From assembly GCA_946886435.1 (NCBI GenBank), contig CAMPIR010000001.1, positions 1-35,843 of the forward strand: a stretch of DNA of 35,843 bases, read 5' to 3'. The stretch comes from an uncultured Candidatus Saccharibacteria bacterium (GTDB lineage: Bacteria > Patescibacteria > Saccharimonadia > Saccharimonadales > UBA5946). Positions 1 through 23,102 of this stretch are shown piece by piece (within the stretch, counting starts at the first letter, position 1; each line of letters opens with the position of its first letter). The notes beneath the pieces were generated by a model. The model ran no database searches and was not told the DNA's origin. It worked only from the letters and a program-made list of their open reading frames with translations. The translations under genes and the position numbers were made by a program.

Positions 1-3000
1 ATGGTGTACGTACCCTCCATCAGGTAGATAGTGCCTCCACCCGCTGGAAGCGCTGCGATAGCTGCGTTGATTGCAGCGTCAGCGTTACCCGCAGTCTCGT
101 CGGCACTCGTAACTACGAAGTCGGCTGCGTCCTTGTTCTTGCTGTTATTAGCCGCGACGACGATCGTAGAGCTGCTGCGGTCTGCTTGCCACTTACCGTT
201 CGCATAAACCAGCAGCTGCTTGGTAGTTGTATCAAAGTAAACCATGCCTTCGGTTGGGCTTACTGGGCGAGTGCCGGTCGCACCACCGGTAATTGTGAGT
301 GAACCGCTCGCACCAACCATCAGGTTACTGGCGCCCACTGTCTTTGTGATTGTGTCAACAGTGAGCACATCCACTCCTGCGGCCGTCTGTACCTGGAAGG
401 CGGTGGCCGTATCTGTCGTGTTGCGCAGCGTCAGAGCGTTACTCATCTGCGCACGGTTCGCACCGCTTCGGTACAGTGCCGTGTCGCCGCCGATAGAAAT
501 ACCGCCCCCTGCTCCTTGCACGCTTAGACCCAACTGGCCCGCTGAGCCCATTGTCAAGATATCAGAGCCATTGTTCTGTATCTTGAACTGGCCAGTGCTG
601 CCGCTGGCGATATTGGTTATAAAGTTGGCATCTGTTGTCGTGTTACTGAGCGTAAAGGCGATGTTTCGCGCATCAGTCGTATTGAGCGTGTTGCCGCCGT
701 CAAATGCACCCTGGAGCGTTATTGATGAGCCGCCACCATTAGCGCCAAGGATCCATGCCGTACCGTTCCACATATAGATCTGACCGGATCCCGCAGAAAC
801 AATCGCACCATGCATCGCAAAATCGGTACTACCAGTGTTCATGATATACATCACTCGTCCGGCCGTAGTCGTTGTCGGACTTGGCATAGTTAATGTAACG
901 CCCACCGTTGTCTGAGGGATGGCAATGCCAGTGAAGCGATCGACGGTAGACCCTGCTATACCAATCGGACCATCTGTCGCAAAATCGCTAAGGGTATGTG
1001 TCGTATTGAGAGTACTTCCGCCGTTCGTGAACTGGCCACCGTTGATCGTCAGGTAATTTTCGAATGTCGTTGCGCCGGATACGTTAAGGGTGCTGTTGAT
1101 AGCCGTTGATCCGTTGAGGAATATAGAGCCCGTACCAGTACTGAAGTTGCCGGTGCCGTTATGAGAGAAGTTGCCCGAAGTCTGGATGAAACCAGTGATG
1201 TTCTGGAGGTCACCAGTATTTCCGAGGCGGAGCGTGCCGCCGGTTTCATAGCCACCGCTTGCTGCGTTGAAGTTATCTCCAGTAATGGTTCCTGTGCTAG
1301 TTAGTCCGGTCAATGAACTCAGCGTACCGATGATAGTGGAGTTGCCCGTAACCGCGATACCATTAGTTGCCGTGAGTTGACCGGATACATTCAAGACAGT
1401 GCCGAGAGCGTTCTGGCTGAGCATCGAATCACCAATGGTAAAGCCGGTGCCATTGAACATTGCGATCGTGTTAGCCGTCCCGCTACCGCCGACTGCACCA
1501 CCCGCACCGCCGGAACCGACACAGTTACCAGCAGTCGTACAGACATCAAAGCCAGCTTGCTGGAGGTTACCACTGAAGTTCGCTGTCGGAGCATCATAGA
1601 GCGCAACATTTGCACTCAGGCGGCCGTCAGCCAGTGTACCGCTCGCTATACTGCCCGCGTCAAGATTCGTCAGGAGCGCACCAGAGAGGGCAGGCAGTTG
1701 ACCGGAGGCGTTGAGCTGTACGAGCTGGCTCGCGCCATTGAAGGTATTGCCCTGCACTGTCACATTTGCACTAAGGCGGGCGTCAGCAAGTACGCCAGCG
1801 TTAATATTGCTAGCATTCATATAATAACTGGCTGCTTGACCGTTCAACTGAGCTGCGTTGACGTCCGTGATTGCTGAGCCATTTCCTTGTAGGTTGCTAG
1901 CGACGAGATCTCCTGCAACCGTAACAACACCCGCAGACTCACTCAAGATTGAGTCAGTGATCGTAAACCCGCTGCCGTCAAAGACAGCAAGTGCACCAGG
2001 GGTTCCACTGCCGCCTATGGCGCCACCGCTTGAACCGATACAATTCCCTTGGCTTGTGCAGATAACCGCGTTAACGCCCACTCCATCACTGGCGTTAAAT
2101 GTATAAGTGGCGCCGTTTGCGTTATTGAATGATGGGGTTTTGATGATAACACCACCAGTGCCGGTACCCTGAAGCGTTAGGCTCTGATCGGTACCGCTCG
2201 CCGACAACGTGCTGCTACCGCTCACACTGAGAACACCGCCGGCCTGGCTAAGTATCGAGTCGGCCAGCGTATAACCACTGCCATTAAACACCGCGATTGT
2301 TCCAGCCGTTCCGCTACCACCGAGCGCACCGCCACCTGAGCCAACACAGTTACCTGCAGTCGTACAGACATCACTACCTGCCTGCTGGAGTGTCCCAGTA
2401 AAGTTCACCGTAGCCGCGTCAAGTAGTGCAACGTTAGCGCTTAGGCGACCATCGTCCAGCGTACCGGTCGCAATACTAGATGCGTTGAGATTCGTCAGCA
2501 GCGCACCGGAGAGGGCAGGCAGTTGACCGGAGGCGTTGAGCTGTACGAGCTGATCAGCTCCGTTAAAGACGTTACCCTGCACCGTAACGTTTGGACTAAG
2601 ACGTGCGTCCGCAAGAGTGCCGGCAGAAATATTAGTGGCAACAAGATCAGTCAGTAGCGCACCAGATAATGCAGGTAACTGGGCGGTGCCGTTCAGTTGA
2701 ACCAACTGGCCTGCACCGTTAAAGGCATTACCTTGAAGTGTGACGTTTACGCTAAGGCGGGCGTCTGCCAAGGCACCTGTAGCTATGTTGCTCGCATTGA
2801 GATAATAACTGGCTGCTTGACCGTTCAACTGAGCTGCGTTGACGTCCGTGATTGCTGAGCCATTTCCTTGTAGGTTAGTTGCAACAAGATCCCCTGCAAC
2901 CGTGACAACACCTGCAGCCTGGCTGAGGGCAGAATCGCTAACCGTATAGCCCGTGCCATCAAATACCGGTAATACCCCCGCGGTACCACCTCCGCCGATA

Positions 3001-5540
3001 GCGCCACCAGAGCCAACACAGTTACCGGCCGTCGTACAAACATCGTTGCCGCCCTGCTGGAGTGTGCCAGTAAAGTTTGCTGTTACTGAGTCAAACAACG
3101 CAACGTTTGCGCTAAGGCGCGCATCATCCAGGGTACCTGTAACAACACTGTTCGCATTGAGGTTAGTAAGCAAGGCGCCCGAAATAGCCGGAAGCTGTCC
3201 CGATGCGTTGAGCTGGACGAGCTGATTAGCTCCATTGAACGTGTTGCCCTGCATCGTCACATTAACGCTCAGTCGACCATCATCCAATGTGCCGGCTGAG
3301 ATATTGCCAGCATCGAGATAGTAGCTACTCGCAAAACCACCGAGCAACGCAGCATTGACGTTTGTGACAGCCGAACCATTACCTTGCAGGTTGCTGGCAA
3401 TGAGATCACCTGCGACTGTAACAGCAGTACCACTCTGGCTTAAAAGTGAATCAGTCAACGTATAGCCGCTACCATTGAACACTGCAATTGTTCCGCTTGT
3501 ACCGTTGCCTCCAATGCCCGCGCCTGAACCGACACAGTTACCAGACATCGTACACACATCCTCACCGCCCTGTTGAAGTGTGCCGGTAAAGTTTGCAACT
3601 GCGGCGCTATATAGAGCAACATTGTTGCTCAACCTACCATCCGATAACACGCCGACAGTGATGTTTCCTGCGTTAATATTAGTCACGCCTCCACCGTTAC
3701 CTTGCAGGTTGGTTGCCGCTAAATCACCGGTAACCGTAACTGTGCCTGCTGACTGAGATAAGAGGGAGTCGCCGATAGTAAACCCGCTACCGTTAAATAC
3801 AGCGATTGTTCCTGCGGTCCCGTCACCACCGACACCACCGCCAGCTCCAAGACAGTTACCGACTGAAGTACAAATCGTTGCAGATACCGTACCAGCATCT
3901 GCAGCATTAAACGTGTACGTGGCCCCATTTGGTCCAATGAATCGTGGGACCATGATAGCAACGCTACCTATGCCGCTACCACTTAGGGTTAGATCCTGGT
4001 CGATTCCGCCCGCGCCAACCAGCAACGCGCCCGTGCCCTGCAGCTCTGCGGATCCGATCGATACCACTCCCGATCCAAATGCGTTAAGGCTAAGGTTCTG
4101 ATTGTTTGCAGATGAGATGCTGAGAGAACCAGTTGATGAAACTGCCGTTCCGGATACGTTTAGCCCATTAACGGCTGCGCTCGTTAGGCTACCGCCAGAT
4201 ATAAATGCACCGTTAACGGTGCTGCCCGAAATAGTTGCTCCGTTAATCGTGCCAGCAACAGCAACGTTACCGGCAAACGAAGCATTGCCGCCATTACTAA
4301 CGACGAGACGATCCAGCCCGTTCCCCTGTAGCCTCAGCAAATCACCACCGCCACTGTTATTTATAAATAAGCTCGGACCCGAGCCCGCGTCATCTTGCGC
4401 GGTGCCAGGCTGCAGGAGTACATATGCACCGCCGCCGCCCGTCGAACAATCCATCCCAACGGTACAAATCGTTTGGTTAACTGCACCGCCCGTTGGCAAC
4501 TGGAACGTTCTGCCTTCAGAGACAAGAACCAGCTGGTCACTGCCTGCAGATATCGTGAAGTCCTGACCGGTCGTCAAACTGGAGATCGTGTTCGCACTGA
4601 GCTGGCCAGTCGCCTGCAGATCACCACTGACTACAATCGATCCCCCTGTCTGGCTCAAGATAGAGTCAGCAAGAACTCCTGTGCCGGTGAAGATTGCTAT
4701 CTGCCCATTCGTTCCGGTACCAGTCAGGAGGTCCCCGGCCGTTCCGATACTAAAGACGCCATTACCGGCGCTAGTCACCGTCAGCTGCGGCGAAGCAGCC
4801 TGAATACTTCGTACGCCCGTGTTAGTGATCGTAGTGCCGTTGATTGCAATCCCACTACCTGCTGTAAAGTTAACAGCACCAGTTTGCCCCTGGAGTGATG
4901 TAACTCCTACGGCAGATGTTTGACCCACTGCACTGATTACATCCTGCGTTAACGAAAGTTGACCATTTTGCAACATAAGACCGGTGCCGAGGACAATCTC
5001 GCCGGCAGAGCCACCCAGAGAGCGAACCGACTCGCCTGTTGAGATAGCAACAAAAGCCTGCCCGTCGTAGATATACGGCGTGTCTGAGGCTTTATCGAAG
5101 TAGATCTGGCCTTTCGTGCCTTCTGACGGCCGGTCGGTCGGAGTCAGTATCAACGAATTGTTGGTGCGAAGCTGTCCATTGATGCTCAATGATTGACTGG
5201 TTGAGAGATTTATCGCACCAGAAGGGACGCCACTCAGATCAATCTTTTGGGCCTCATAACGGCCATTAACGCCCGTAAGGCTTGCGTTTTGGCTACTTGC
5301 ATCGCTTCGGTACTTGGCTAAAACAGCAACCGCCAAGAGACCGACAAGTAAAAGGACGACCACAACGGCACCCCAGAGCTTCATGCCGCCCGCCAGCCTT
5401 AACCGGCCAAGCACCGTACCGGTCTGTGGCTGCTGAGATGTCGCCACAGTTAAGTTAGGCGCTGCGCTCTGTTCGCCCGACCCCATGGGTTGACTATTGG
5501 CCATCCCACTATTTATTTCACTTTGTTGTTTGTCTTCCAT
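1..5540 (-). CDS. Giant membrane-anchored repeat protein, C-terminus beyond left edge
   Basis: The frame is open from an ATG at 5540 to the window edge (1,846 codons) with no stop. The first 54 residues are polar and Gln/Ser-rich. Residues 55-75 (LWGAVVVVLLLVGLLAVAVLA) form one membrane helix, so I infer an internal N-terminus and a long exterior region. The exterior carries repeating modules: a GTAGTIAVFNGSGYTL-type block, LQQxGxDVCTTxGNC, NLQGNGSAxTDVNAA, LNASGQLPALSGALLTNL and GTLxDxRLSxNV. Seven CX5C cysteine pairs recur, one per major module. Near the left edge the protein enters a region like the start of a pectate-lyase-type beta-helix (AINAAIAALPAGGGTIYL), cut by the window. The modules resemble phage tail-fibre and large CPR surface proteins; function is inferred as an adhesin or surface fibre. 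A -10 box TATAAT lies 30 nt before the ATG. The only purine-rich stretch, AAAGG, is 1 nt from the ATG, so there is no well-placed Shine-Dalgarno. Confidence 0.85.
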   Translation of the reverse strand, partial: MEDKQQSEINSGMANSQPMGSGEQSAAPNLTVATSQQPQTGTVLGRLRLAGGMKLWGAVVVVLLLVGLLAVAVLAKYRSDASSQNASLTGVNGRYEAQKIDLSGVPSGAINLSTSQSLSINGQLRTNNSLILTPTDRPSEGTKGQIYFDKASDTPYIYDGQAFVAISTGESVRSLGGSAGEIVLGTGLMLQNGQLSLTQDVISAVGQTSAVGVTSLQGQTGAVNFTAGSGIAINGTTITNTGVRSIQAASPQLTVTSAGNGVFSIGTAGDLLTGTGTNGQIAIFTGTGVLADSILSQTGGSIVVSGDLQATGQLSANTISSLTTGQDFTISAGSDQLVLVSEGRTFQLPTGGAVNQTICTVGMDCSTGGGGAYVLLQPGTAQDDAGSGPSLFINNSGGGDLLRLQGNGLDRLVVSNGGNASFAGNVAVAGTINGATISGSTVNGAFISGGSLTSAAVNGLNVSGTAVSSTGSLSISSANNQNLSLNAFGSGVVSIGSAELQGTGALLVGAGGIDQDLTLSGSGIGSVAIMVPRFIGPNGATYTFNAADAGTVSATICTSVGNCLGAGGGVGGDGTAGTIAVFNGSGFTIGDSLLSQSAGTVTVTGDLAATNLQGNGGGVTNINAGNITVGVLSDGRLSNNVALYSAAVANFTGTLQQGGEDVCTMSGNCVGSGAGIGGNGTSGTIAVFNGSGYTLTDSLLSQSGTAVTVAGDLIASNLQGNGSAVTNVNAALLGGFASSYYLDAGNISAGTLDDGRLSVNVTMQGNTFNGANQLVQLNASGQLPAISGALLTNLNANSVVTGTLDDARLSANVALFDSVTANFTGTLQQGGNDVCTTAGNCVGSGGAIGGGGTAGVLPVFDGTGYTVSDSALSQAAGVVTVAGDLVATNLQGNGSAITDVNAAQLNGQAASYYLNASNIATGALADARLSVNVTLQGNAFNGAGQLVQLNGTAQLPALSGALLTDLVATNISAGTLADARLSPNVTVQGNVFNGADQLVQLNASGQLPALSGALLTNLNASSIATGTLDDGRLSANVALLDAATVNFTGTLQQAGSDVCTTAGNCVGSGGGALGGSGTAGTIAVFNGSGYTLADSILSQAGGVLSVSGSSTLSASGTDQSLTLQGTGTGGVIIKTPSFNNANGATYTFNASDGVGVNAVICTSQGNCIGSSGGAIGGSGTPGALAVFDGSGFTITDSILSESAGVVTVAGDLVASNLQGNGSAITDVNAAQLNGQAASYYMNASNINAGVLADARLSANVTVQGNTFNGASQLVQLNASGQLPALSGALLTNLDAGSIASGTLADGRLSANVALYDAPTANFSGNLQQAGFDVCTTAGNCVGSGGAGGAVGGSGTANTIAMFNGTGFTIGDSMLSQNALGTVLNVSGQLTATNGIAVTGNSTIIGTLSSLTGLTSTGTITGDNFNAASGGYETGGTLRLGNTGDLQNITGFIQTSGNFSHNGTGNFSTGTGSIFLNGSTAINSTLNVSGATTFENYLTINGGQFTNGGSTLNTTHTLSDFATDGPIGIAGSTVDRFTGIAIPQTTVGVTLTMPSPTTTTAGRVMYIMNTGSTDFAMHGAIVSAGSGQIYMWNGTAWILGANGGGSSITLQGAFDGGNTLNTTDARNIAFTLSNTTTDANFITNIASGSTGQFKIQNNGSDILTMGSAGQLGLSVQGAGGGISIGGDTALYRSGANRAQMSNALTLRNTTDTATAFQVQTAAGVDVLTVDTITKTVGASNLMVGASGSLTITGGATGTRPVSPTEGMVYFDTTTKQLLVYANGKWQADRSSSTIVVAANNSKNKDAADFVVTSADETAGNADAAINAAIAALPAGGGTIYLMEGTYT
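1684..1727. repeat. 44-bp direct repeat, copy 1
   Basis: Identical to 2509-2552, offset 825 bp (275 codons). It encodes the QLVQLNASGQLPALS part of the protein module. Identity at DNA level, where only protein similarity is needed, suggests recent duplication or gene conversion. Confidence 0.9.
1821..1895. repeat. 75-bp direct repeat, copy 1
   Basis: Base-for-base identical to 2802-2876. The offset is 981 bp, exactly 327 codons, so recombination between copies would delete or add a whole module in frame. It encodes NLQGNGSAITDVNAAQLNGQ and the following AASYY. Confidence 0.92.
2509..2552. repeat. 44-bp direct repeat, copy 2
   Basis: Second exact copy of the segment at 1684-1727, in the same reading frame of the giant repeat gene. 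Confidence 0.9.
2802..2876. repeat. 75-bp direct repeat, copy 2
   Basis: Second exact copy of 1821-1895 within the giant repeat gene. A more diverged third version of the module lies near 3320-3400. Confidence 0.92.
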
Positions 5541-5570
5541 GCCTTTGTATCTGTTGGCTATACAAGAGTT

Positions 5571-5576
5571 ATTATA
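5571..5576 (-). promoter_or_regulatory. -10 box of the giant repeat gene
   Basis: TATAAT on the minus strand, 30 nt before the ATG at 5540. No good -35 is seen 16-18 nt upstream. The rest of 5577-5790 is AT-rich and has no gene. It contains one perfect DnaA-box-like 9-mer (minus TTATCCACA, 5639-5647) and a short hairpin (accc/gggt near 5609-5622). Confidence 0.5.
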
Positions 5577-5790
5577 CACCCGCCTGAACACATAAACTAT
5601 ACAATTTCACCCTTGAAATGGGTCAAAATCTGCAAACCTGTGGATAACTATTCATAGATTGTTATAAATCAAAAGATGACAGTAATAAATACTACAAATA
5701 TAACAGATGTGACCATGGCGTTTTTGGTTTTATAGTAATAGTTACATCACAATGCAGTCGTGCACCACTCGCCTACGTAGCCATTCTCAT

Positions 5791-5828
5791 AAAAAACACC
5801 CTCGGCTTATGGTTGCGGGGGTGTTTTT
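5791..5828 (-). terminator. Intrinsic terminator after the tRNA-Ala/tRNA-Ile genes
   Basis: Inverted repeat AAAAACACC/GGTGTTTTT with a GC-rich inner part. On the minus strand the hairpin is followed by TTTTTTA. It lies about 70 nt downstream of tRNA-Ile and would end the tRNA transcript. Confidence 0.75.
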
Positions 5829-5896
5829 GCTATAACGCACCGTTATACTACGGCGCCCTTTGGGCGCGTATGCTTAACGAAATGTATACTCACATC

Positions 5897-5973
5897 TGGT
5901 GGGCGATGAGGGATTTGAACCTCCGACCTCGTCATTATCAGTGACGCGCTCTAACCAACTGAGCTAATCGCCC
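5897..5973 (-). tRNA. tRNA-Ile(GAU)
   Basis: Cloverleaf of 77 nt with acceptor GGGCGAT/ATCGCCC, D-arm TAGCTCAGTTGGTTAGAGC, anticodon loop CTGATAA (anticodon GAT) and T-loop TTCAAAT. The 3' CCA is encoded. It lies 44 nt after tRNA-Ala, the pair usually found in the 16S-23S spacer, but here the pair is separated from 16S by a protein gene. Confidence 0.97.
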
Positions 5974-6017
5974 ACGGGTGTGAGTATGCATGCGGCCATC
6001 GTAAAAATATAAAAACC

Positions 6018-6094
6018 TGGTGGAGCGTCGGGGACTCGAACCCCGGACCCCCTGCTTGCAAAGCAGGTGCTCTAGCCAACTGAGCTAACGCCCC
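6018..6094 (-). tRNA. tRNA-Ala(UGC)
   Basis: Cloverleaf of 77 nt with acceptor GGGGCGT/ACGCTCC (one G-U pair), anticodon loop TTTGCAA (anticodon TGC) and T-loop TTCGAGT. The 3' CCA is encoded. It is first of a two-tRNA unit with tRNA-Ile; no confident promoter was seen immediately upstream. Confidence 0.97.
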
Positions 6095-6170
6095 ATGAAT
6101 AGGTTTATTGATACATGATCGTACGTGTGTGGTTTTGGAAGGTACTAAGGGGTTGGTTAAAGCCCTGTCG

Positions 6171-6201
6171 GCAGCTGTTTGGCTAACCGAGCTAACGTCC
6201 C
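6171..6201 (-). pseudogene. 5'-half tRNA-Ala-like remnant
   Basis: On the minus strand, GGGACGTTAGCTCGGTTAGC matches the acceptor strand and D-arm of the adjacent tRNA-Ala with about four transitions over the first 22 nt. It then diverges. No anticodon arm, T-arm or matching 3' acceptor strand follows. It lies about 80 nt upstream of tRNA-Ala, so it is probably a decayed partial duplicate. The match is short and could be chance. Confidence 0.4.
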
Positions 6202-6268
6202 AAGATTTTAAATGACCGCGACGGTCAGAGGACATTGTACCAGATAAACAGGGGCGGATGCAAGGTTT

Positions 6269-6886
6269 TTAGAGCGCCCGTGAACCCAACGAGCGGACAT
6301 AACGTTCATGGGTTATCTCGAGTACCTCTTCTAAACGAGCATCGGTCATTCCGTGAAGGCGAAGATCGGTATCAACCGCCTCGTTATGGGGGTAATGCAT
6401 AACTACGTGAGACCAGGTGGCCAGAGCCGTGTTCGGTACCACCCCTCTGTCATCGAGCAGAGCGATTCCATTATACAGATGCTTATTTTTAGTGATGACG
6501 GCGTCCTCCGACACGTGGTTTCCGAAAACTCCATCGAAATGTTCCGTCAGCCAGTGACGCTTCTCTATCTCGCATGCAGGATGAGCACTCAGGGGCGAGC
6601 TCAACACTCGCGGCTGCCATCCTCGGTCTATCATGCGCTGCCAGCCCTCTAGCGCACCCTCTAGGACAGGCAACGACTTAAAGAAACCAGCTTCTACATA
6701 CACTTCTTTGATCTCACTGCTGTGTTCAGGATAGTCATCGGCAATATAAAAGTTATCACGGCTTCTATCACCTTTAAACGCTACGTGACGAGACTTCATT
6801 CGCGAGATGATCTCCTCATCAAACCCGGCAATAACATTGTCCATATCAACGTAGACGGTCTTTTCGGGTATGTATCGTTCAGCCAT
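6269..6886 (-). CDS. 5'(3')-deoxyribonucleotidase-like HAD hydrolase (NT5C family)
   Basis: Predicted 205 residues. The N-terminus carries the HAD motif VYVDMDNVIAGFDEE, where the two Asp of DxD are the expected nucleophile and acid/base. VLSSPLSAH is the likely motif II with its Ser, KNKHLYNG the Lys region, and LLDDRG the acidic motif. Family members dephosphorylate (deoxy)nucleoside monophosphates in the cytosol, fitting nucleotide salvage in a reduced genome. The gene sits between the 16S terminator and the tRNAs. The start is uncertain: I chose the ATG at 6886 because it directly precedes the conserved core. An ATG at 6925 with an upstream AGAGG would add 13 residues. A second family member lies at 31065-31673. 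Confidence 0.78.
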   Translation of the reverse strand: MAERYIPEKTVYVDMDNVIAGFDEEIISRMKSRHVAFKGDRSRDNFYIADDYPEHSSEIKEVYVEAGFFKSLPVLEGALEGWQRMIDRGWQPRVLSSPLSAHPACEIEKRHWLTEHFDGVFGNHVSEDAVITKNKHLYNGIALLDDRGVVPNTALATWSHVVMHYPHNEAVDTDLRLHGMTDARLEEVLEITHERYVRSLGSRAL

Positions 6887-6941
6887 AGTACTAGTTTTCC
6901 ATACCCGCAAAACAAATGCGAGCATAAGCATACACCTCTGA

Positions 6942-6975
6942 ACTAAAAAACCACCCTACTCGAGTGGTTTTTTAG
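6942..6975 (-). terminator. Terminator directly after the 16S rRNA unit
   Basis: Perfect 13-bp inverted repeat ACTAAAAAACCAC/GTGGTTTTTTAGT with T-runs on both strands. It lies 6 nt beyond the 16S 3' processing strand, so transcription of the rRNA unit appears to end here, before any 23S rRNA. Confidence 0.85.
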
Positions 6976-6980
6976 TGTTT

Positions 6981-6999
6981 CACAACTTAGCAATGCAAG
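6981..6999 (-). other. 16S rRNA processing stalk, 3' strand
   Basis: This 19-nt trailer segment is complementary to the leader segment 8720-8738 over its full length (17 Watson-Crick plus 2 G-U pairs). Such stalks enclosing 16S are cut by RNase III-type enzymes. Two further hairpins lie between it and the mature 3' end: GTCCTC/GAGGAC and ATCGTTTTG/CAAAACGAT, near 7050-7100. Confidence 0.85.
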
Positions 7000-7156
7000 C
7001 CTCAATCGTCAGTCCCTGCCATCACTGACAGGAGTATAAGGTGAACTTAGTCTCGTCCTCTTACGAGGACTACATCGTTTTGTAAGCTCAGCAAAACGAT
7101 AAGACCGACCTAGCTCTACTATAGATTACTCGTATAGCAGGCATAGAACTCCCTAG

Positions 7157-8682
<1,526 letters not shown>

Positions 8683-16344: not shown

Positions 16345-19270
16345 ATGCGGGCTTTTCGTCTTGGTCGTCTGACTTATAGCGGAGATTACCGTGAAGGTCT
16401 ATGAATATCTCATCGGTATCATCGTCCTGTTGAACCGAAAGCTCCTGCGGAGGTTGCGCAGGCGGCGTGGCGGCCTTTTGTTGTTGCGCGTTACTCTTTT
16501 GGCGCGCCTCGGCAAGCGCCTGTTCCATGCTCTGCTGCTCGGAGAGCTGTTTGGCGGCTAGGTCACGCTGTTTGGCAAGCTCTTCTTTACTCAGGACAGA
16601 ACGCAGCTTGGAAAGCCGTTCATCAGCAGGCTGAGGTTTTGCAACCGGAGGTACTGGAAGCGGTTTCGGCTGCGGCGCTGGCTTCGGTTGCGCAGCTCCG
16701 CCCTGCTGTAGTTGTTTTCGCTTGGCAAGCCATTCGTCCAGGAAAGACGACCCGGAGTCCGTACCGCCGCCCGGCTTTGTCGATGCCATTCGTTGTTCGA
16801 ATGCTTGCTTTTTAGCCTCTCTGGCTGCGTCTCCGGCCCGTAGACGCGTAAATATCTCCTTTTCGACCTGTGCACGGGGTTTGCCGTATTTTGCTGCAGA
16901 GAGCTTCTTGAGAGCGTCTGCGAGTTGTGGGTTCGAACGGCCAAGAATCGGCGGAAAGGACATGCTAAACGGCGCCGATGGCACACCGTTTATCTGCACC
17001 ACCGAGACACCTTCGTAATTTGGTAGCTTCGTCAGATCCTCAGCATCAAACACCGGCATGAACTTCTTCTCCATAAGTTCAGCGTCCGTCGTACCGATAC
17101 GACCAGAGATTACCGTACCGACGTTACCGATGATCGCCTCGCGAATCTTATCAGTAAGCTGTGACACAAACTGGTTCGCGAGGATTAGATTGAGACGGTA
17201 TTTTCGGGCTTCGGAAAGGATAGACTCAAAACTGTCGGTAGCAAAGTTCTGAAACTCATCGACGTAGAGCGCAAAGTCAACACGCTGGTCTTCGGGGAGA
17301 TCTGCCCTTCCCATCGCAGCCGCCTGGAACTTCATGACAAAAATCATACCCAGCAACTGCGAGTTGAGTTCACCAGTCTTTCCTTTACTTAGGTTAACAA
17401 GGAGGATTTTCTTGTTATCCATGATGTCACGTAGGTCAAAACCGGACTTTGTCTGCCCGATGATATTACGCATCATCTCGTTGCTGAGGAATGCACCGAA
17501 CTTGCTGACGAACCAGCCAAGGACCTCAGACTTGTGGTAGTCGCTCGTCTGCGCCATCTCCTTGTTCCAAAAGTCCAGAACCGTCTGATCGGTCACATGC
17601 TTGAGCTTTTCTTTGGCAAACGCATCATCGTTAAATACCTGAGGGATATCGATAAAGCTCGTGCCTTTTGGGTCACTCATGATGGTAAGAGCTGCGTTAC
17701 GGAACCAGTGCTCGTATCGCGGGCCGATGATACCGGTGTGGCCCGGGTCATAGAGACGGTAGAGCATCGCGATCGCCTCCTGAACCAAAAAGTCACGCTG
17801 GTCAGGCGTATCAAACTCGAACAGGTTTAGGCCAAGTGGGCTCTCCATGTCTGCCGGGTTGAAATATATGACATCTTCGACACGCTCTTTTGGCACCATG
17901 CCCAGGAGCGCCTCTGCAGAGTCGCCATGCGGATCGATAAAGGCGAAGCCTTTGCCGTCGAGCATATCCTGTAAGGCCAGGTTCTCAAGCAATTTCGATT
18001 TACCGGTACCGGTCTGACCGATGATGTAGGTATGACGTCGACGGTCGTTGGTGGCGAGTCGTATCTCTTTTTTGACACCGCGATAGATGTTGTAACCCAT
18101 TAGGAAGCCTTCATTGAGGAGTTGGTTCGGTCCATCTACCTGTTTTGAGGCTTGCCGTTGTAATTGTGACGTCGGAATATTGCGCTGATCAGGTAGATGG
18201 AACATTGTTGCAAGTTCTACGCTGTTTAGAATATTCTGCTTAACCTCTTGCGGGAAGAAGCGGAAAATAAATGCAGTCACAAATGACTCCATGTTTTTTG
18301 CAAGAGAAAACTTAAAGCCGTTCTTGCCCGGGCTGTCAAACAAGGCAAAGGCTGCAACGACGTTCTTGAGTAACACCTGTGAGCGAGTCGCGGTATTAGA
18401 TGAGGCAACGACACGGACCAGCACCTCGTATCCAGGATGTCTCGTCTTATCCTCGAGCGCATCTATCGTCGCCTGCTCTAAGTTACTGAGCTGCTTATCC
18501 TCTGGTTTAACCTCTTTTTGCTCTGGAGCTTTCCAGAGCGCCTCGAGAAGATCTTTCGGCGCCAGTGCGCTGCTGACGCCAGTCTGTTTCACTCCTTTAT
18601 CTTTTCGAATCTTTGATGCAACGGTTACAACGTTTTTTGTCCACCCCTCTGGTGCTGGGCGCATCAGTATCTGGATGCCGATGCCATCTTCGCGACCAGC
18701 AACCGCAAGTGCGTTCAAAATGGCACGCATTGCATCGCGTTTCGACTCTTGGAAGGTAGCTATCGGATACGCATACTGCGTCTTCAGTGTTAGCTCACCG
18801 CCGATCGTCGCGCTCATCTTGCCGACCTTGCTAAATATATTGTGTTCTTCCACCTCCTCGAGACGAGCGGCCGGATACGCTGCCGCTACGGCCTGTCGGA
18901 CAACATCAAGTAACGCCATCGGGACGACGACGTAGTAGTGGATCAAGCCTTTGCTGCCGATTATCTCAAATGATAGGTGACGCTGACCGTATAGCTTGCT
19001 TTTGAAGCCCTTAGTGACCGTACTGGCGATGATGTTATACATCACTTGAGCCTGAGAGATCGTCTCCTCTGTTATATCTCGCTCATCGCGTCCGCCTGAC
19101 TGGATGTCATCACTTGCTGGCGGAATATGAATAAGCAGCGGTACCATCTTGAGTCCACGCTCATAGTTCTTGGCTTCACGAAGTACTTTCTGGTATTGCC
19201 AGTAGAAAAATCCCACAATAGCGCCAGCGATAGCCAGGACTATGACGACAACGATGATGATATCAAGCAT
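16343..19270 (-). CDS. TraG/VirD4-like type IV secretion or conjugation ATPase
   Basis: Predicted 975 residues. One membrane helix lies at residues 3-25, followed by a domain of about 350 residues without clear motifs. The ATPase domain has Walker A GQTGTGKS near residue 417 with FIDPHGDSAE soon after, Walker B FALYVDEFQNF near 667, and the sensor-like LILANQFVSQL. This arrangement is typical of the VirD4/TraG/TraD coupling proteins and of the VirB4-like ATPases found in CPR genomes. The last 150 residues are low-complexity Gln/Pro/Ala, ending in an acidic segment. AGGAG is 9 nt before ATG. It follows the 145-residue gene by 12 nt and converges on the LPXTG protein pair. A role in moving protein or DNA across the envelope is inference from the family. 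Confidence 0.82.
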   Translation of the reverse strand: MLDIIIVVVIVLAIAGAIVGFFYWQYQKVLREAKNYERGLKMVPLLIHIPPASDDIQSGGRDERDITEETISQAQVMYNIIASTVTKGFKSKLYGQRHLSFEIIGSKGLIHYYVVVPMALLDVVRQAVAAAYPAARLEEVEEHNIFSKVGKMSATIGGELTLKTQYAYPIATFQESKRDAMRAILNALAVAGREDGIGIQILMRPAPEGWTKNVVTVASKIRKDKGVKQTGVSSALAPKDLLEALWKAPEQKEVKPEDKQLSNLEQATIDALEDKTRHPGYEVLVRVVASSNTATRSQVLLKNVVAAFALFDSPGKNGFKFSLAKNMESFVTAFIFRFFPQEVKQNILNSVELATMFHLPDQRNIPTSQLQRQASKQVDGPNQLLNEGFLMGYNIYRGVKKEIRLATNDRRRHTYIIGQTGTGKSKLLENLALQDMLDGKGFAFIDPHGDSAEALLGMVPKERVEDVIYFNPADMESPLGLNLFEFDTPDQRDFLVQEAIAMLYRLYDPGHTGIIGPRYEHWFRNAALTIMSDPKGTSFIDIPQVFNDDAFAKEKLKHVTDQTVLDFWNKEMAQTSDYHKSEVLGWFVSKFGAFLSNEMMRNIIGQTKSGFDLRDIMDNKKILLVNLSKGKTGELNSQLLGMIFVMKFQAAAMGRADLPEDQRVDFALYVDEFQNFATDSFESILSEARKYRLNLILANQFVSQLTDKIREAIIGNVGTVISGRIGTTDAELMEKKFMPVFDAEDLTKLPNYEGVSVVQINGVPSAPFSMSFPPILGRSNPQLADALKKLSAAKYGKPRAQVEKEIFTRLRAGDAAREAKKQAFEQRMASTKPGGGTDSGSSFLDEWLAKRKQLQQGGAAQPKPAPQPKPLPVPPVAKPQPADERLSKLRSVLSKEELAKQRDLAAKQLSEQQSMEQALAEARQKSNAQQQKAATPPAQPPQELSVQQDDDTDEIFIDLHGNLRYKSDDQDEKPA

Positions 19271-21378: not shown

Positions 21379-21467
21379 GCGCTGTGGTGTTGGTTTTTAT
21401 GTCTGAACACTACATATGCCATAAAGCTAATAACTTTTCCACAGTTTATAAAAGGTAAAAATTACTG

Positions 21468-21496
21468 TTGACACGAGCGTTTTAGAGACTTAATAT
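21468..21496 (+). promoter_or_regulatory. Promoter of candidate small RNA
   Basis: Perfect TTGACA (21468-21473), 17-nt spacer, TAATAT (21491-21496). One of the closest matches to the sigma-70 consensus in the window, and no protein gene follows on this strand. Confidence 0.82.
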
Positions 21497-21502
21497 AGGG
21501 GT

Positions 21503-21598
21503 AGTTCCTGAATACAAAACTTGCTCAGGAACCAAAAACCAAAAGACAAAAGAAAACCAAATTTTAAAACAGCCGTTCCTCGCAGACGGCTGTTTTTT
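21503..21598 (+). ncRNA. Candidate small regulatory RNA, about 96 nt
   Basis: The predicted transcript starts 6-7 nt after the -10 box. At its very 5' end an 8-bp perfect hairpin forms (GTTCCTGA 21504-21511 with TCAGGAAC 21525-21532). An A-rich, almost G-free single-stranded linker of about 33 nt follows (21533-21565). The RNA ends in a textbook intrinsic terminator (ACAGCCGT/ACGGCTGT then TTTTTT). The longest frame lacks an ATG and a ribosome binding site, so it is unlikely to be coding. It resembles no RNA family I know. The terminator may also serve the convergent GH5 gene. Confidence 0.68.
21566..21598. terminator. Intrinsic terminator of the sRNA, possibly shared with the GH5 gene
   Basis: AAAACAGCCGT/ACGGCTGTTTT with T6 on the plus strand. 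On the minus strand TTTTAAAATTT follows, 16 nt after the GH5 stop, so it can act in both directions. Confidence 0.88.
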
Positions 21599-21613
21599 AT
21601 TTCCTTTTATACG

Positions 21614-22710: not shown

Positions 22711-23102
22711 TGGTGGAGCTGCGGGGTACTGCCCCCCGGTCCGGTTGGTAACTGATCATTCGTCTACAAGCATAGTTAGTTCCAGGTTACATTCTCGGCA
22801 TAAAGAACTAACAAAAAAGCGAGAATGGTCTATGAATGGATGTCACGGATCCGCTTCACAGCTACGGAGACGTCAAGCCATATGAGTATGACACTCCAGA
22901 ACCCTTATATGGCGTCAAGGCTGGAGCGGCTCTCGTAATTAAACTCGAGCTGGCGCAAAGGCAAAGCTAGGAACGCTGAAAGCGCTCTTCACTGAAGCCC
23001 ATGCTGATGCAAATGGTTTTGCAGTTAAAAACTGTTTGCGTCAGTTAGTCGGCTTGCAAAATGATCTGTTAAGGTCCAATCGTCGAAAGCTATGTCAGCC
23101 CC
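22711..23102 (-). ncRNA. ssrA: Transfer-messenger RNA
   Basis: About 392 nt. The tRNA-like end has a 7-bp acceptor (5' GGGGCTG with 3' CAGCTCC, then A and an encoded CCA) and the conserved TTCGACG in the D-region. Helix P2 is built of UUGG/CCAA, UAAC/GUUA and GAUCAUU/AAUGAUC, joining both ends of the molecule. A resume codon GCA (23022) is preceded by TAACT and opens a 27-codon tag, AKPFASAW...FAFAPARV, ending TAA at 22941-22939. tmRNA with SmpB rescues stalled ribosomes and tags the product for proteolysis. Two oddities: the T-arm CGGGG/CCCCG encloses loop GGCAGTA instead of TTCGANT, and the tag lacks the usual LAA-type end. No clear promoter is seen; the strand and ends are secure from the helices. 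Confidence 0.9.

What the first reader, a model, noticed from the sequence alone, without database searches (positions are those of the whole stretch)
21468..21598. Self-contained small RNA gene with no known family
A near-consensus promoter (TTGACA, 17 nt, TAATAT) is followed at the expected distance by an 8-bp 5'-end hairpin, an A-rich and almost G-free linker of about 33 nt, and a strong intrinsic terminator. There is no credible ORF. The whole unit is about 96 nt and sits alone between ydcF-like and GH5 genes. The exposed A/C-rich linker could be a target-pairing or protein-binding segment. I know of no family with this layout.
Basis: partly seen in the sequence, partly recalled or inferred. 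Interest (0 to 1): 0.72.

Follow-up and report, generated by a model that had tools for sequence, protein, structure and literature searches.

The report
Class-wide small RNA of Saccharibacteria
A tiny RNA gene of about 100 letters, matching no known RNA family, recurs across the Saccharibacteria, and an almost unchanging loop in it is the mirror match of sites in other RNAs of the same bacteria, so it probably works by pairing with them.

Summary
Window 21468-21597 carries a promoter, a 5' hairpin, an A-rich linker and an intrinsic terminator. It is a conserved RNA gene: a covariance model finds it in 251 of 392 Saccharimonadia genomes at E <= 1e-4, nearly always once. All 18 hits in a phylum-wide sample of 286 lie in genomes also drawn for that class. 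Both hairpins covary. tmRNA is the usual convergent neighbour; ydcF is not. No Rfam family fits.

The most constrained part is the terminator loop: CUCGCAG in 90 of 91 copies. The complementary word (CUGCGAG or UGCGAG) occurs at the ribosome-binding site of a DUF4367 membrane-protein gene, mostly where the sRNA loop is CCUCGCAG; in a 5'UTR hairpin of a surface-protein gene (8 of 11); after khpA (11 of 11); and in the 3' hairpin of a second sRNA (7 of 7). Hfq: 0 of 61 genomes.

Best reading: an Hfq-independent trans-acting sRNA that pairs through its terminator loop, with a mirror-loop sRNA as decoy. The gene is near certain; pairing is inferred. The window's closest relatives lack the DUF4367 site, so no target is shown for this organism.

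The parts
21435..21443 (+). DnaA-box-like TTTTCCACA upstream of the promoter
   Evidence: TTWTCCACA, either strand, lies within 120 nt upstream of the -35 in 44 of 90 loci; 60 shuffled words give a mean of 0.35, the largest 15. 'DnaA box' is a recalled label.
21455..21465 (+). palindrome GTAAAAATTAC just before the -35, possible regulator site
   Evidence: exact in 3 of 4 sequences of the window clade; a comparable AGTATTTTTTACT-like element stands there in many other relatives (by eye)
21468..21496 (+). sigma-70-type promoter TTGACA-17-TAATAT
   Evidence: conserved in 90 loci
21497..21603 (+). the small RNA (covariance-model span; the transcript probably starts near 21503)
   Evidence: 251 of 392 class genomes
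21504..21532 (+). 5' hairpin, 8 bp
   Evidence: helices 1 and 2
21533..21565 (+). A-rich single-stranded linker (carries ACTCCAC in most relatives, not here)
21566..21596 (+). intrinsic terminator; its A tract and T tract could let it act on both strands (inference)
   Evidence: helix 3
21579..21585 (+). CTCGCAG, near-invariant terminator-loop word, proposed pairing seed
   Evidence: 89 of 89 sequences of A6; of the two loci left out of A6, L154 has it and L162 does not
22711..23102 (-). tmRNA, the conserved convergent neighbour
   Evidence: tmRNA 3' end convergent downstream in 79 of 90 loci (regular expression); tmRNA found in 15 of 16 loci by Rfam

Best explanation
It is an autonomous, trans-acting small RNA of the class Saccharimonadia. 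Shown: a conserved promoter, a covarying 5' hairpin, an A-rich unpaired linker, a covarying terminator hairpin with an almost invariant loop word CUCGCAG, and no conserved ORF. Inferred: the terminator loop is the pairing seed. It would pair with CUGCGAG(G) at the ribosome-binding site of a DUF4367 membrane-protein mRNA and block translation, and make loop-loop contacts with a hairpin in the 5'UTR of a surface-protein gene. Its free level would be set by decoys with the same word: a second sRNA of similar architecture and the stretch downstream of khpA. It works without Hfq.
For: RNA gene: 251 of 392 class genomes at E <= 1e-4, one copy in all but two; 18 of 286 phylum genomes at E <= 1e-3, all 18 also in the class draw; 95.9% of cells paired, covariation score 0.463 against 0.237 in shuffles, 160 both-side-changed cells against 48.6, and at most 32 with slid partners. 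Loop: CUCGCAG in 89 of 89 aligned RNAs although the bases on either side vary. Targets: of 367 ortholog triples in three genomes, the loop piece's two best scores, 28.7 and 24.7, exceed the best of 8 shuffles, 21.8. The best is an 11-nt perfect match at the SD of the DUF4367 gene in two of the three genomes. In 50 genomes read, TGCGAG stands in the 160 nt before that gene in 21 of 36 whose sRNA loop is CCUCGCAG and 1 of 14 with another loop (Fisher p = 0.0012, not corrected for kinship); 16 of the 21, and the one, lie 11 to 26 nt before the matched start. TGCGAG is first of 120 permutations in these stretches (22 genomes; mean 1.07; next best 4), its reverse complement occurs in 0. Control: comM UTRs 0 of 83. 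Surface-protein 5'UTR with CTGCGAG in a hairpin: 8 of 11 usable genomes. Two or three TGCGAG downstream of khpA in 11 of 11. Second sRNA: CTGCGAG in its 3' hairpin in 7 of 7; its 5' 16-mer in 54 of 392 class genomes against 1 for the reversed pattern. Hfq in 0 of 61 class genomes, 5 of 14 control genomes ring.
Against: No transcript or binding data. The window clade (G001, G002, G003, G326) lacks the DUF4367 site, so no target is shown for this organism. Linker and whole-RNA target scans did not beat shuffles. CTGCGAG is not strongly enriched in UTRs at large: rank 23 of 420 permutations. CUCGCAG and CUGCGAG share the outer CU...AG and differ only in the middle three letters; folds often put part of CUGCGAG into short stems, so the complementarity is less independent than seven letters suggest and sites may be partly hidden. 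Two covariation measures, number of pairs with both-side changes (10 against 9.9) and further pair types (22 against 22.0), do not differ from shuffles. 5 of the 21 DUF4367 sites lie 45 to 81 nt before the matched start (G044, G087, G120, G143, G167). Genomes of one class are not independent.
Confidence: 0.62

Rival explanations
1. The terminator loop is a protein-binding site (for example for KhpA or another RNA-binding protein). The sRNA titrates or guides that protein, and the CUGCGAG hairpins are sites of the same or another protein; complementarity between the two words is incidental.
For: Both words sit in small hairpins with CU...AG flanks; the stretch after khpA, a KH-domain gene (Pfam PF13083), itself carries the word, as an autoregulated RNA-binding protein's message might.
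Against: The shared word is the exact reverse complement, not the same word; the DUF4367 sites lie mostly at the SD and track the base next to the loop core; the bases that would close a mini-stem in the sRNA loop are not conserved.
Confidence: 0.17
2. The RNA acts through its linker: ACUCCAC is an anti-Shine-Dalgarno-like stretch that pairs with GUGGAGU-type ribosome-binding sites or otherwise touches the ribosome, with the hairpins serving only as stability ends.
For: ACTCCAC in 76 of 89 RNAs; GTGGAG in the SD zone of 13 of 780, 8 of 820 and 8 of 795 genes in three genomes, against 1 to 3 in either control zone.
Against: Absent from the window and its closest relatives; linker target scores do not exceed shuffles; it leaves the near-invariant loop unexplained.
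Confidence: 0.1
3. The conserved thing is mostly cis-acting punctuation: a promoter island and a bidirectional terminator that insulates convergent tmRNA, with the RNA itself a by-product.
For: The tmRNA 3' end is convergent and close (median 61 nt in the 79 of 90 loci where the regular expression finds it); the terminator has an A tract before and a T tract after it.
Against: Covarying 5' hairpin and near-consensus promoter; near-invariant loop letters, which a terminator does not need; complementary word in a separate second sRNA.
Confidence: 0.06

Closest known systems
Hfq-independent base-pairing sRNAs of Gram-positive bacteria with C/U-rich hairpin loops (RNAIII, RsaE/RoxS type; recalled)
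   Same: Short autonomous transcript, hairpins with an exposed C/U-containing loop aimed at Shine-Dalgarno sequences, no need for Hfq.
   Different: No Rfam family matches; the proposed seed sits in the terminator loop and is almost invariant across a class.
sRNA sponges and decoys (recalled; a Caulobacter example, PMC12559287, seen as listing and abstract start only)
   Same: A second RNA copies the target word and could soak up the sRNA.
   Different: Here the proposed sponge is a separate sRNA with a layout like the regulator's and the complementary word in its 3' hairpin.
Kissing-loop antisense pairs such as ColE1 RNAI/RNAII (recalled)
   Same: Complementarity between hairpin loops of two structured RNAs.
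   Different: Not encoded on opposite strands of one locus: the two sRNA genes lie about 20 to 46 kb apart in the three genomes read (places).
Ribosomal protein L10 leader, RF00557
   Same: 37 bits on a 241-base stretch, with terminator and A-rich stretch.
   Different: Below the family's 44-bit cut-off, not listed for 16 relatives at E <= 10, and no L10 gene downstream.
tmRNA and 6S RNA as housekeeping RNAs
   Same: Single-copy, class-wide, next to tmRNA.
   Different: The tmRNA is present separately; no long bulged hairpin as in 6S RNA (6S fold recalled), and no Rfam hit.

Membership tests
Trans-acting base-pairing sRNA | Own promoter and terminator, no conserved ORF | tested here: met
   By sequence only:
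Trans-acting base-pairing sRNA | Conserved sequence and structure | tested here: met
Trans-acting base-pairing sRNA | Conserved complementarity to RNAs from other loci | tested here: inconclusive
   Met in many relatives; not met for DUF4367 in the window clade, where the other partners were not read
Trans-acting base-pairing sRNA | Transcript of about 100 nt and effect on targets | not testable with these tools
   no expression data
Hfq-dependent sRNA | Hfq in the genome | tested here: not met
   PF17209 in 0 of 61 class genomes, 5 of 14 control genomes ring
L10 leader RF00557 | Score above the gathering cut-off | tested here: not met
   37 against 44 bits; not listed for 16 relatives
L10 leader RF00557 | rplJ gene downstream on the same strand | tested here: not met
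   GH5 and tmRNA on the other strand, a Mg-chelatase-type gene (comM) further on
Any Rfam 15 family | Score above the gathering cut-off | tested here: not met
sRNA sponge (second sRNA) | Same word as the targets, accessible | tested here: inconclusive
   CTGCGAG in the 3' hairpin in 7 of 7, but the folds pair part of it in a short inner stem

The most novel reading that the evidence does not exclude
Saccharibacteria run an Hfq-free RNA network built on two sRNAs of one architecture whose 3' hairpin loops are mutually complementary. One is the regulator described here, the other its decoy. mRNAs for envelope and surface proteins and the khpA 3' region copy the decoy's word. DnaA-box-like sites before the regulator's promoter in about half of the loci would tie it to replication and hence to the switch between life stages on the host cell.
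Probability: 0.33. Interest if true: 0.87.

Novelty: new variant of a known kind. Interest (0 to 1): 0.76.

Why it matters
In the paper library held here, none of the rows listed for Saccharibacteria or Patescibacteria together with sRNA, small RNA, noncoding, regulatory or structured RNA is, by title or start of abstract, about this RNA or about a regulatory sRNA network of this group (the first three lists were capped, 109 shows 9 of 10 papers and 110 all 21). Term searches in two Patescibacteria papers found no sRNA, small RNA or noncoding RNA (PMC10633639; PMC11665869; passages only). The second paper says that the mechanisms governing differentiation between host-attached and swarmer cells remain completely unknown and that translation regulation is likely to be key (passage). 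A class-wide sRNA with a near-invariant loop, candidate targets among envelope genes and a mirror-loop partner would turn that question into tests on one small gene, and show what RNA regulation can look like in a reduced genome without Hfq.

Tried and rejected
L10 leader: below cut-off and not repeated in relatives. Origin of replication (because of DnaA-box-like sites): the RNA is far from the skew minimum and from dnaA in G242 and G145 and from dnaA in G171 (these three have no exact TTWTCCACA near the RNA). Coding gene: no conserved ORF. ydcF leader or partner: the neighbour is not conserved. Linker as seed: no target above shuffles. General UTR enrichment of CTGCGAG: weak, rank 23 of 420 permutations; TGCGAG rank 4 of 120. 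Intergenic CTGCGAG: 32 sites in three genomes against a mean of 15.7 for 40 permuted words; in hairpin loops by fold 5 against a mean of 1.45 and a maximum of 6, so only suggestive. A pairing at rpsB (second-best triple) was not followed. Viral contigs gave no match. An imagined pairing of 5' GGGGU with linker ACUCC was dropped because GAGGU variants break it (inspection). A consensus fold of the khpA 3' region is weak (-6.6 kcal/mol, ten sequences) and pairs part of the word, so a defined structure is not claimed.

Selections to know: the 90 loci are the 30 best R1 hits plus 60 that I chose from the further places listed, all with E below 1e-7. L154 and L162 were left out of alignment A6 by eye as divergent. 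R2 is trained on 88 sequences from the genomes it then finds. The DUF4367 gene was found in 86 of 90 genomes; the stretch before it was read in 50 of them, the three discovery genomes included, 20 of the rest chosen by me (8 for their A-type and 1 for its T-type loop). For the 40-UTR word count, starts were set by script; 10 genomes were not located and were left out of that count but are in the recount. khpA: 8 of 15 genomes with a hit were cut out, plus three. Surface protein: 10 of 15 genomes with a hit were cut out, one unusable, plus two.

Full report
OBSERVATION. The sequence at 21468-21597 is as described: TTGACA, 17 nt, TAATAT; an 8-bp hairpin; a 33-nt A-rich linker; a 12-bp terminator. 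The folding energy is far below dinucleotide shuffles (z = -5.7). The promoter score alone is not above chance for a 4-kb stretch (5 found, 4.1 expected). Rfam gives no family at its cut-offs. The best sub-threshold hit, L10 leader at 37 bits (cut-off 44), is not listed for 16 relatives at E <= 10.

CONSERVATION. Through the neighbouring YdcF protein three Saccharibacteria contigs with the same order were found (L001-L003; ydcF, this RNA, tmRNA), and the whole unit is conserved there with compensatory changes. A covariance model from four sequences found 357 of 392 genomes of the class at the loose limit E <= 1 (weak ones may be chance). A second model from 89 sequences found 251 of 392 at E <= 1e-4, one copy in all but two; 141 had no match at that limit. 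In 286 genomes drawn from the phylum, 18 matched at E <= 1e-3, and all 18 were genomes also drawn for the class; how many of the 268 others belong to the class is not told. As far as sampled, the family is widespread in Saccharimonadia and not seen outside. Base pairs: 95.9% of cells pair; 160 both-side-changed cells against 48.6 in shuffles and at most 32 with slid partners; covariation score 0.463 against 0.237. The number of pairs with both-side changes (10 of 14) and of further pair types (22) equal the shuffled means. Shuffles do not correct for kinship; the slid control does.

ANATOMY OF THE FAMILY. Promoter: TTGACA in 86 of 90 loci, spacer 17 in 89, TATTAT in 66. The stretch between -10 and RNA reads AGGGGTAG in 61 of 89; whether part of it is transcribed is open. 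The linker carries ACTCCAC in 76 of 89, but not in the window clade. The terminator loop carries CTCGCAG in 89 of 89 aligned sequences; of the two loci left out of the alignment one has it (L154) and one does not (L162). The base before it is C in 69, A in 19 and T in 1. Its neighbours are a convergent tmRNA (79 of 90 by regular expression; 15 of 16 by Rfam) and comM (84 of 90; downstream on the same strand in 67), not ydcF (3 of 90). DnaA-box-like TTWTCCACA lies upstream of the -35 in 44 of 90 against a mean of 0.35 for 60 shuffled words, one of which reached 15. The RNA is not at the replication origin in the three genomes read, and those three have no exact such box near it.

TARGET SEARCH. 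Three genomes were gene-called crudely and 367 ortholog triples scored for pairing at -40..+22 with three pieces of the RNA. Linker and whole RNA gave nothing above 8 shuffles (20.3 against up to 26.5; 20.5 against up to 23.3). The loop piece gave two triples above the shuffled maximum (28.7 and 24.7 against 21.8). The first is a membrane protein (membrane span by eye) with a C-terminal DUF4367 domain: CCTGCGAGGAA, an 11-nt perfect complement of the loop, at its Shine-Dalgarno position in G242 and G145, but not in G171, whose sRNA loop reads ACUCGCAG. The second is rpsB by its sequence (recalled), not followed.

TEST IN OTHER GENOMES. The DUF4367 gene was found in 28 of 30, 29 of 30 and 29 of 30 genomes. 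The 160 nt before it were read in 50 genomes, the three discovery genomes included (recounted). TGCGAG stands there in 21 of 36 genomes with the CCUCGCAG loop and in 1 of 14 with another loop; that one, G063, reads TTGCGAGT and so matches its A-type loop. Without the discovery genomes the figures are 19 of 34 and 1 of 13. Of the 21, 16 lie 11 to 26 nt before the matched start; G143 (-45), G167 (-50), G120 (-51), G044 (-53) and G087 (-81, start unknown) lie further up. Fisher p = 0.0012, not corrected for kinship. In these 50 stretches TGCGAG is present in 22, the mean of its 120 permutations is 1.07, the next best 4, and its reverse complement 0. Among all 6-, 7- and 8-mers in the 40 UTRs located by script, TGCGAG (16), TGCGAGG (13) and CTGCGAGG with TGCGAGGA (11 each) are the commonest. 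Controls: CTGCGAG in the SD zone of 1 of 780, 2 of 820 and 0 of 795 genes; TGCGAG in 0 of 83 comM UTRs. The window clade (G001, G002, G003, G326) has no site.

FURTHER RNAs WITH THE COMPLEMENTARY WORD. (a) A surface protein with a DUF11 domain and a sortase-type C-terminus (by eye) has a 5'UTR hairpin with CTGCGAG at its tip and a stem that varies in a compensating way (by eye): 8 of 11 usable genomes, of which 6 of 9 new ones. Eighteen genomes were searched, 15 had the gene, 10 loci were cut out, one of them unusable. (b) Downstream of khpA (KH domain PF13083), before trmD in G242, a conserved stretch has two or three TGCGAG in 11 of 11 genomes (3, 8); individual folds form hairpins but the consensus fold is weak and pairs part of the word. 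(c) A second sRNA with a promoter-like pair in most of the copies (by eye), a 5' hairpin and a 3' hairpin has CTGCGAG in the upper part of that hairpin in 7 of 7 genomes; in six it is the terminator, in G171 a hairpin before it. Its 5' 16-mer occurs in 54 of 392 class genomes with at most one mismatch, the reversed pattern in 1. No Rfam family reaches its cut-off at (b) in G242 or at (c) in four loci (Yfr10 at 33.2 and 31.3 bits, cut-off 43, in two of them). KhpA was found in 15 of 16 genomes; Hfq in 0 of 61.

MECHANISM. Best reading: the terminator loop is a seed that pairs with CUGCGAG. At the DUF4367 SD this should block ribosome binding; in the surface-protein UTR it would be a loop-loop contact of unknown sign; the second sRNA and the khpA 3' region would be decoys. 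Shown: the RNA gene by comparative sequence, its conserved loop, the conserved complementary words. Inferred: transcription, pairing, repression, decoy action. Caveats: CUCGCAG and CUGCGAG differ only in the middle three letters and the latter often folds into a short stem, so the complementarity is weaker evidence than seven free letters; a general excess of the word in UTRs is slight; a protein-binding reading remains (17%).

KNOWN OR NEW. Paper searches (listings and abstract starts, several of them capped) and term searches in two Patescibacteria papers (passages) showed no description of this RNA. One listed paper concerns RNA-guided TIGR systems of phages and parasitic bacteria (PMC12045711, abstract start), a different matter. 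As a kind it belongs to base-pairing sRNAs with sponges; the mirrored 3' hairpins of two sRNAs from separate loci in an Hfq-less lineage make it, if right, a new variant.

Noticed in passing
L367-L370 (around base 1501); G242 C1:661782, G145 C1:405328, G171 C1:153879: Second sRNA (5' GCACCTGTTTGAATC, 3' hairpin with CTGCGAG, promoter-like pair in most copies); 5S rRNA lies in the same 3-kb locus in 3 of 4.
   Followed up: partly
L194 around 17330-17440; L349-L356 downstream of khpA: Conserved non-coding stretch after khpA with two or three TGCGAG in 11 of 11 genomes; no Rfam family in G242.
   Followed up: partly
L357-L361, L363; G242 and G145: 5'UTR hairpin with CTGCGAG at its tip before a DUF11 surface-protein gene, stem varies in a compensating way.
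   Followed up: partly
L301-L348 upstream of the DUF4367 gene: Words TGCTTATG / CATAAGC recur upstream of the DUF4367 gene, perhaps a regulator site.
   Followed up: no
window 1-8682: The rRNA operon looks split: 16S, a 5'-nucleotidase-like ORF (NT5C), tRNA-Ala, tRNA-Ile, then an ORF of at least 1863 aa running off the window; no 23S found in the window.
   Followed up: partly
window 21408-21419: ACACTAYATATG in 3 of 4 sequences of the window clade, perhaps the ydcF promoter or a regulator box.
   Followed up: no
L144, L145, L146, L151, L153, L172: Insertions of about 10 to 21 nt in the 3' side of the 5' hairpin in one subgroup.
   Followed up: no
L162 (G311): Divergent copy whose terminator loop reads CTCATTGCAG and whose ACTCCAC lies after the terminator.
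   Followed up: no
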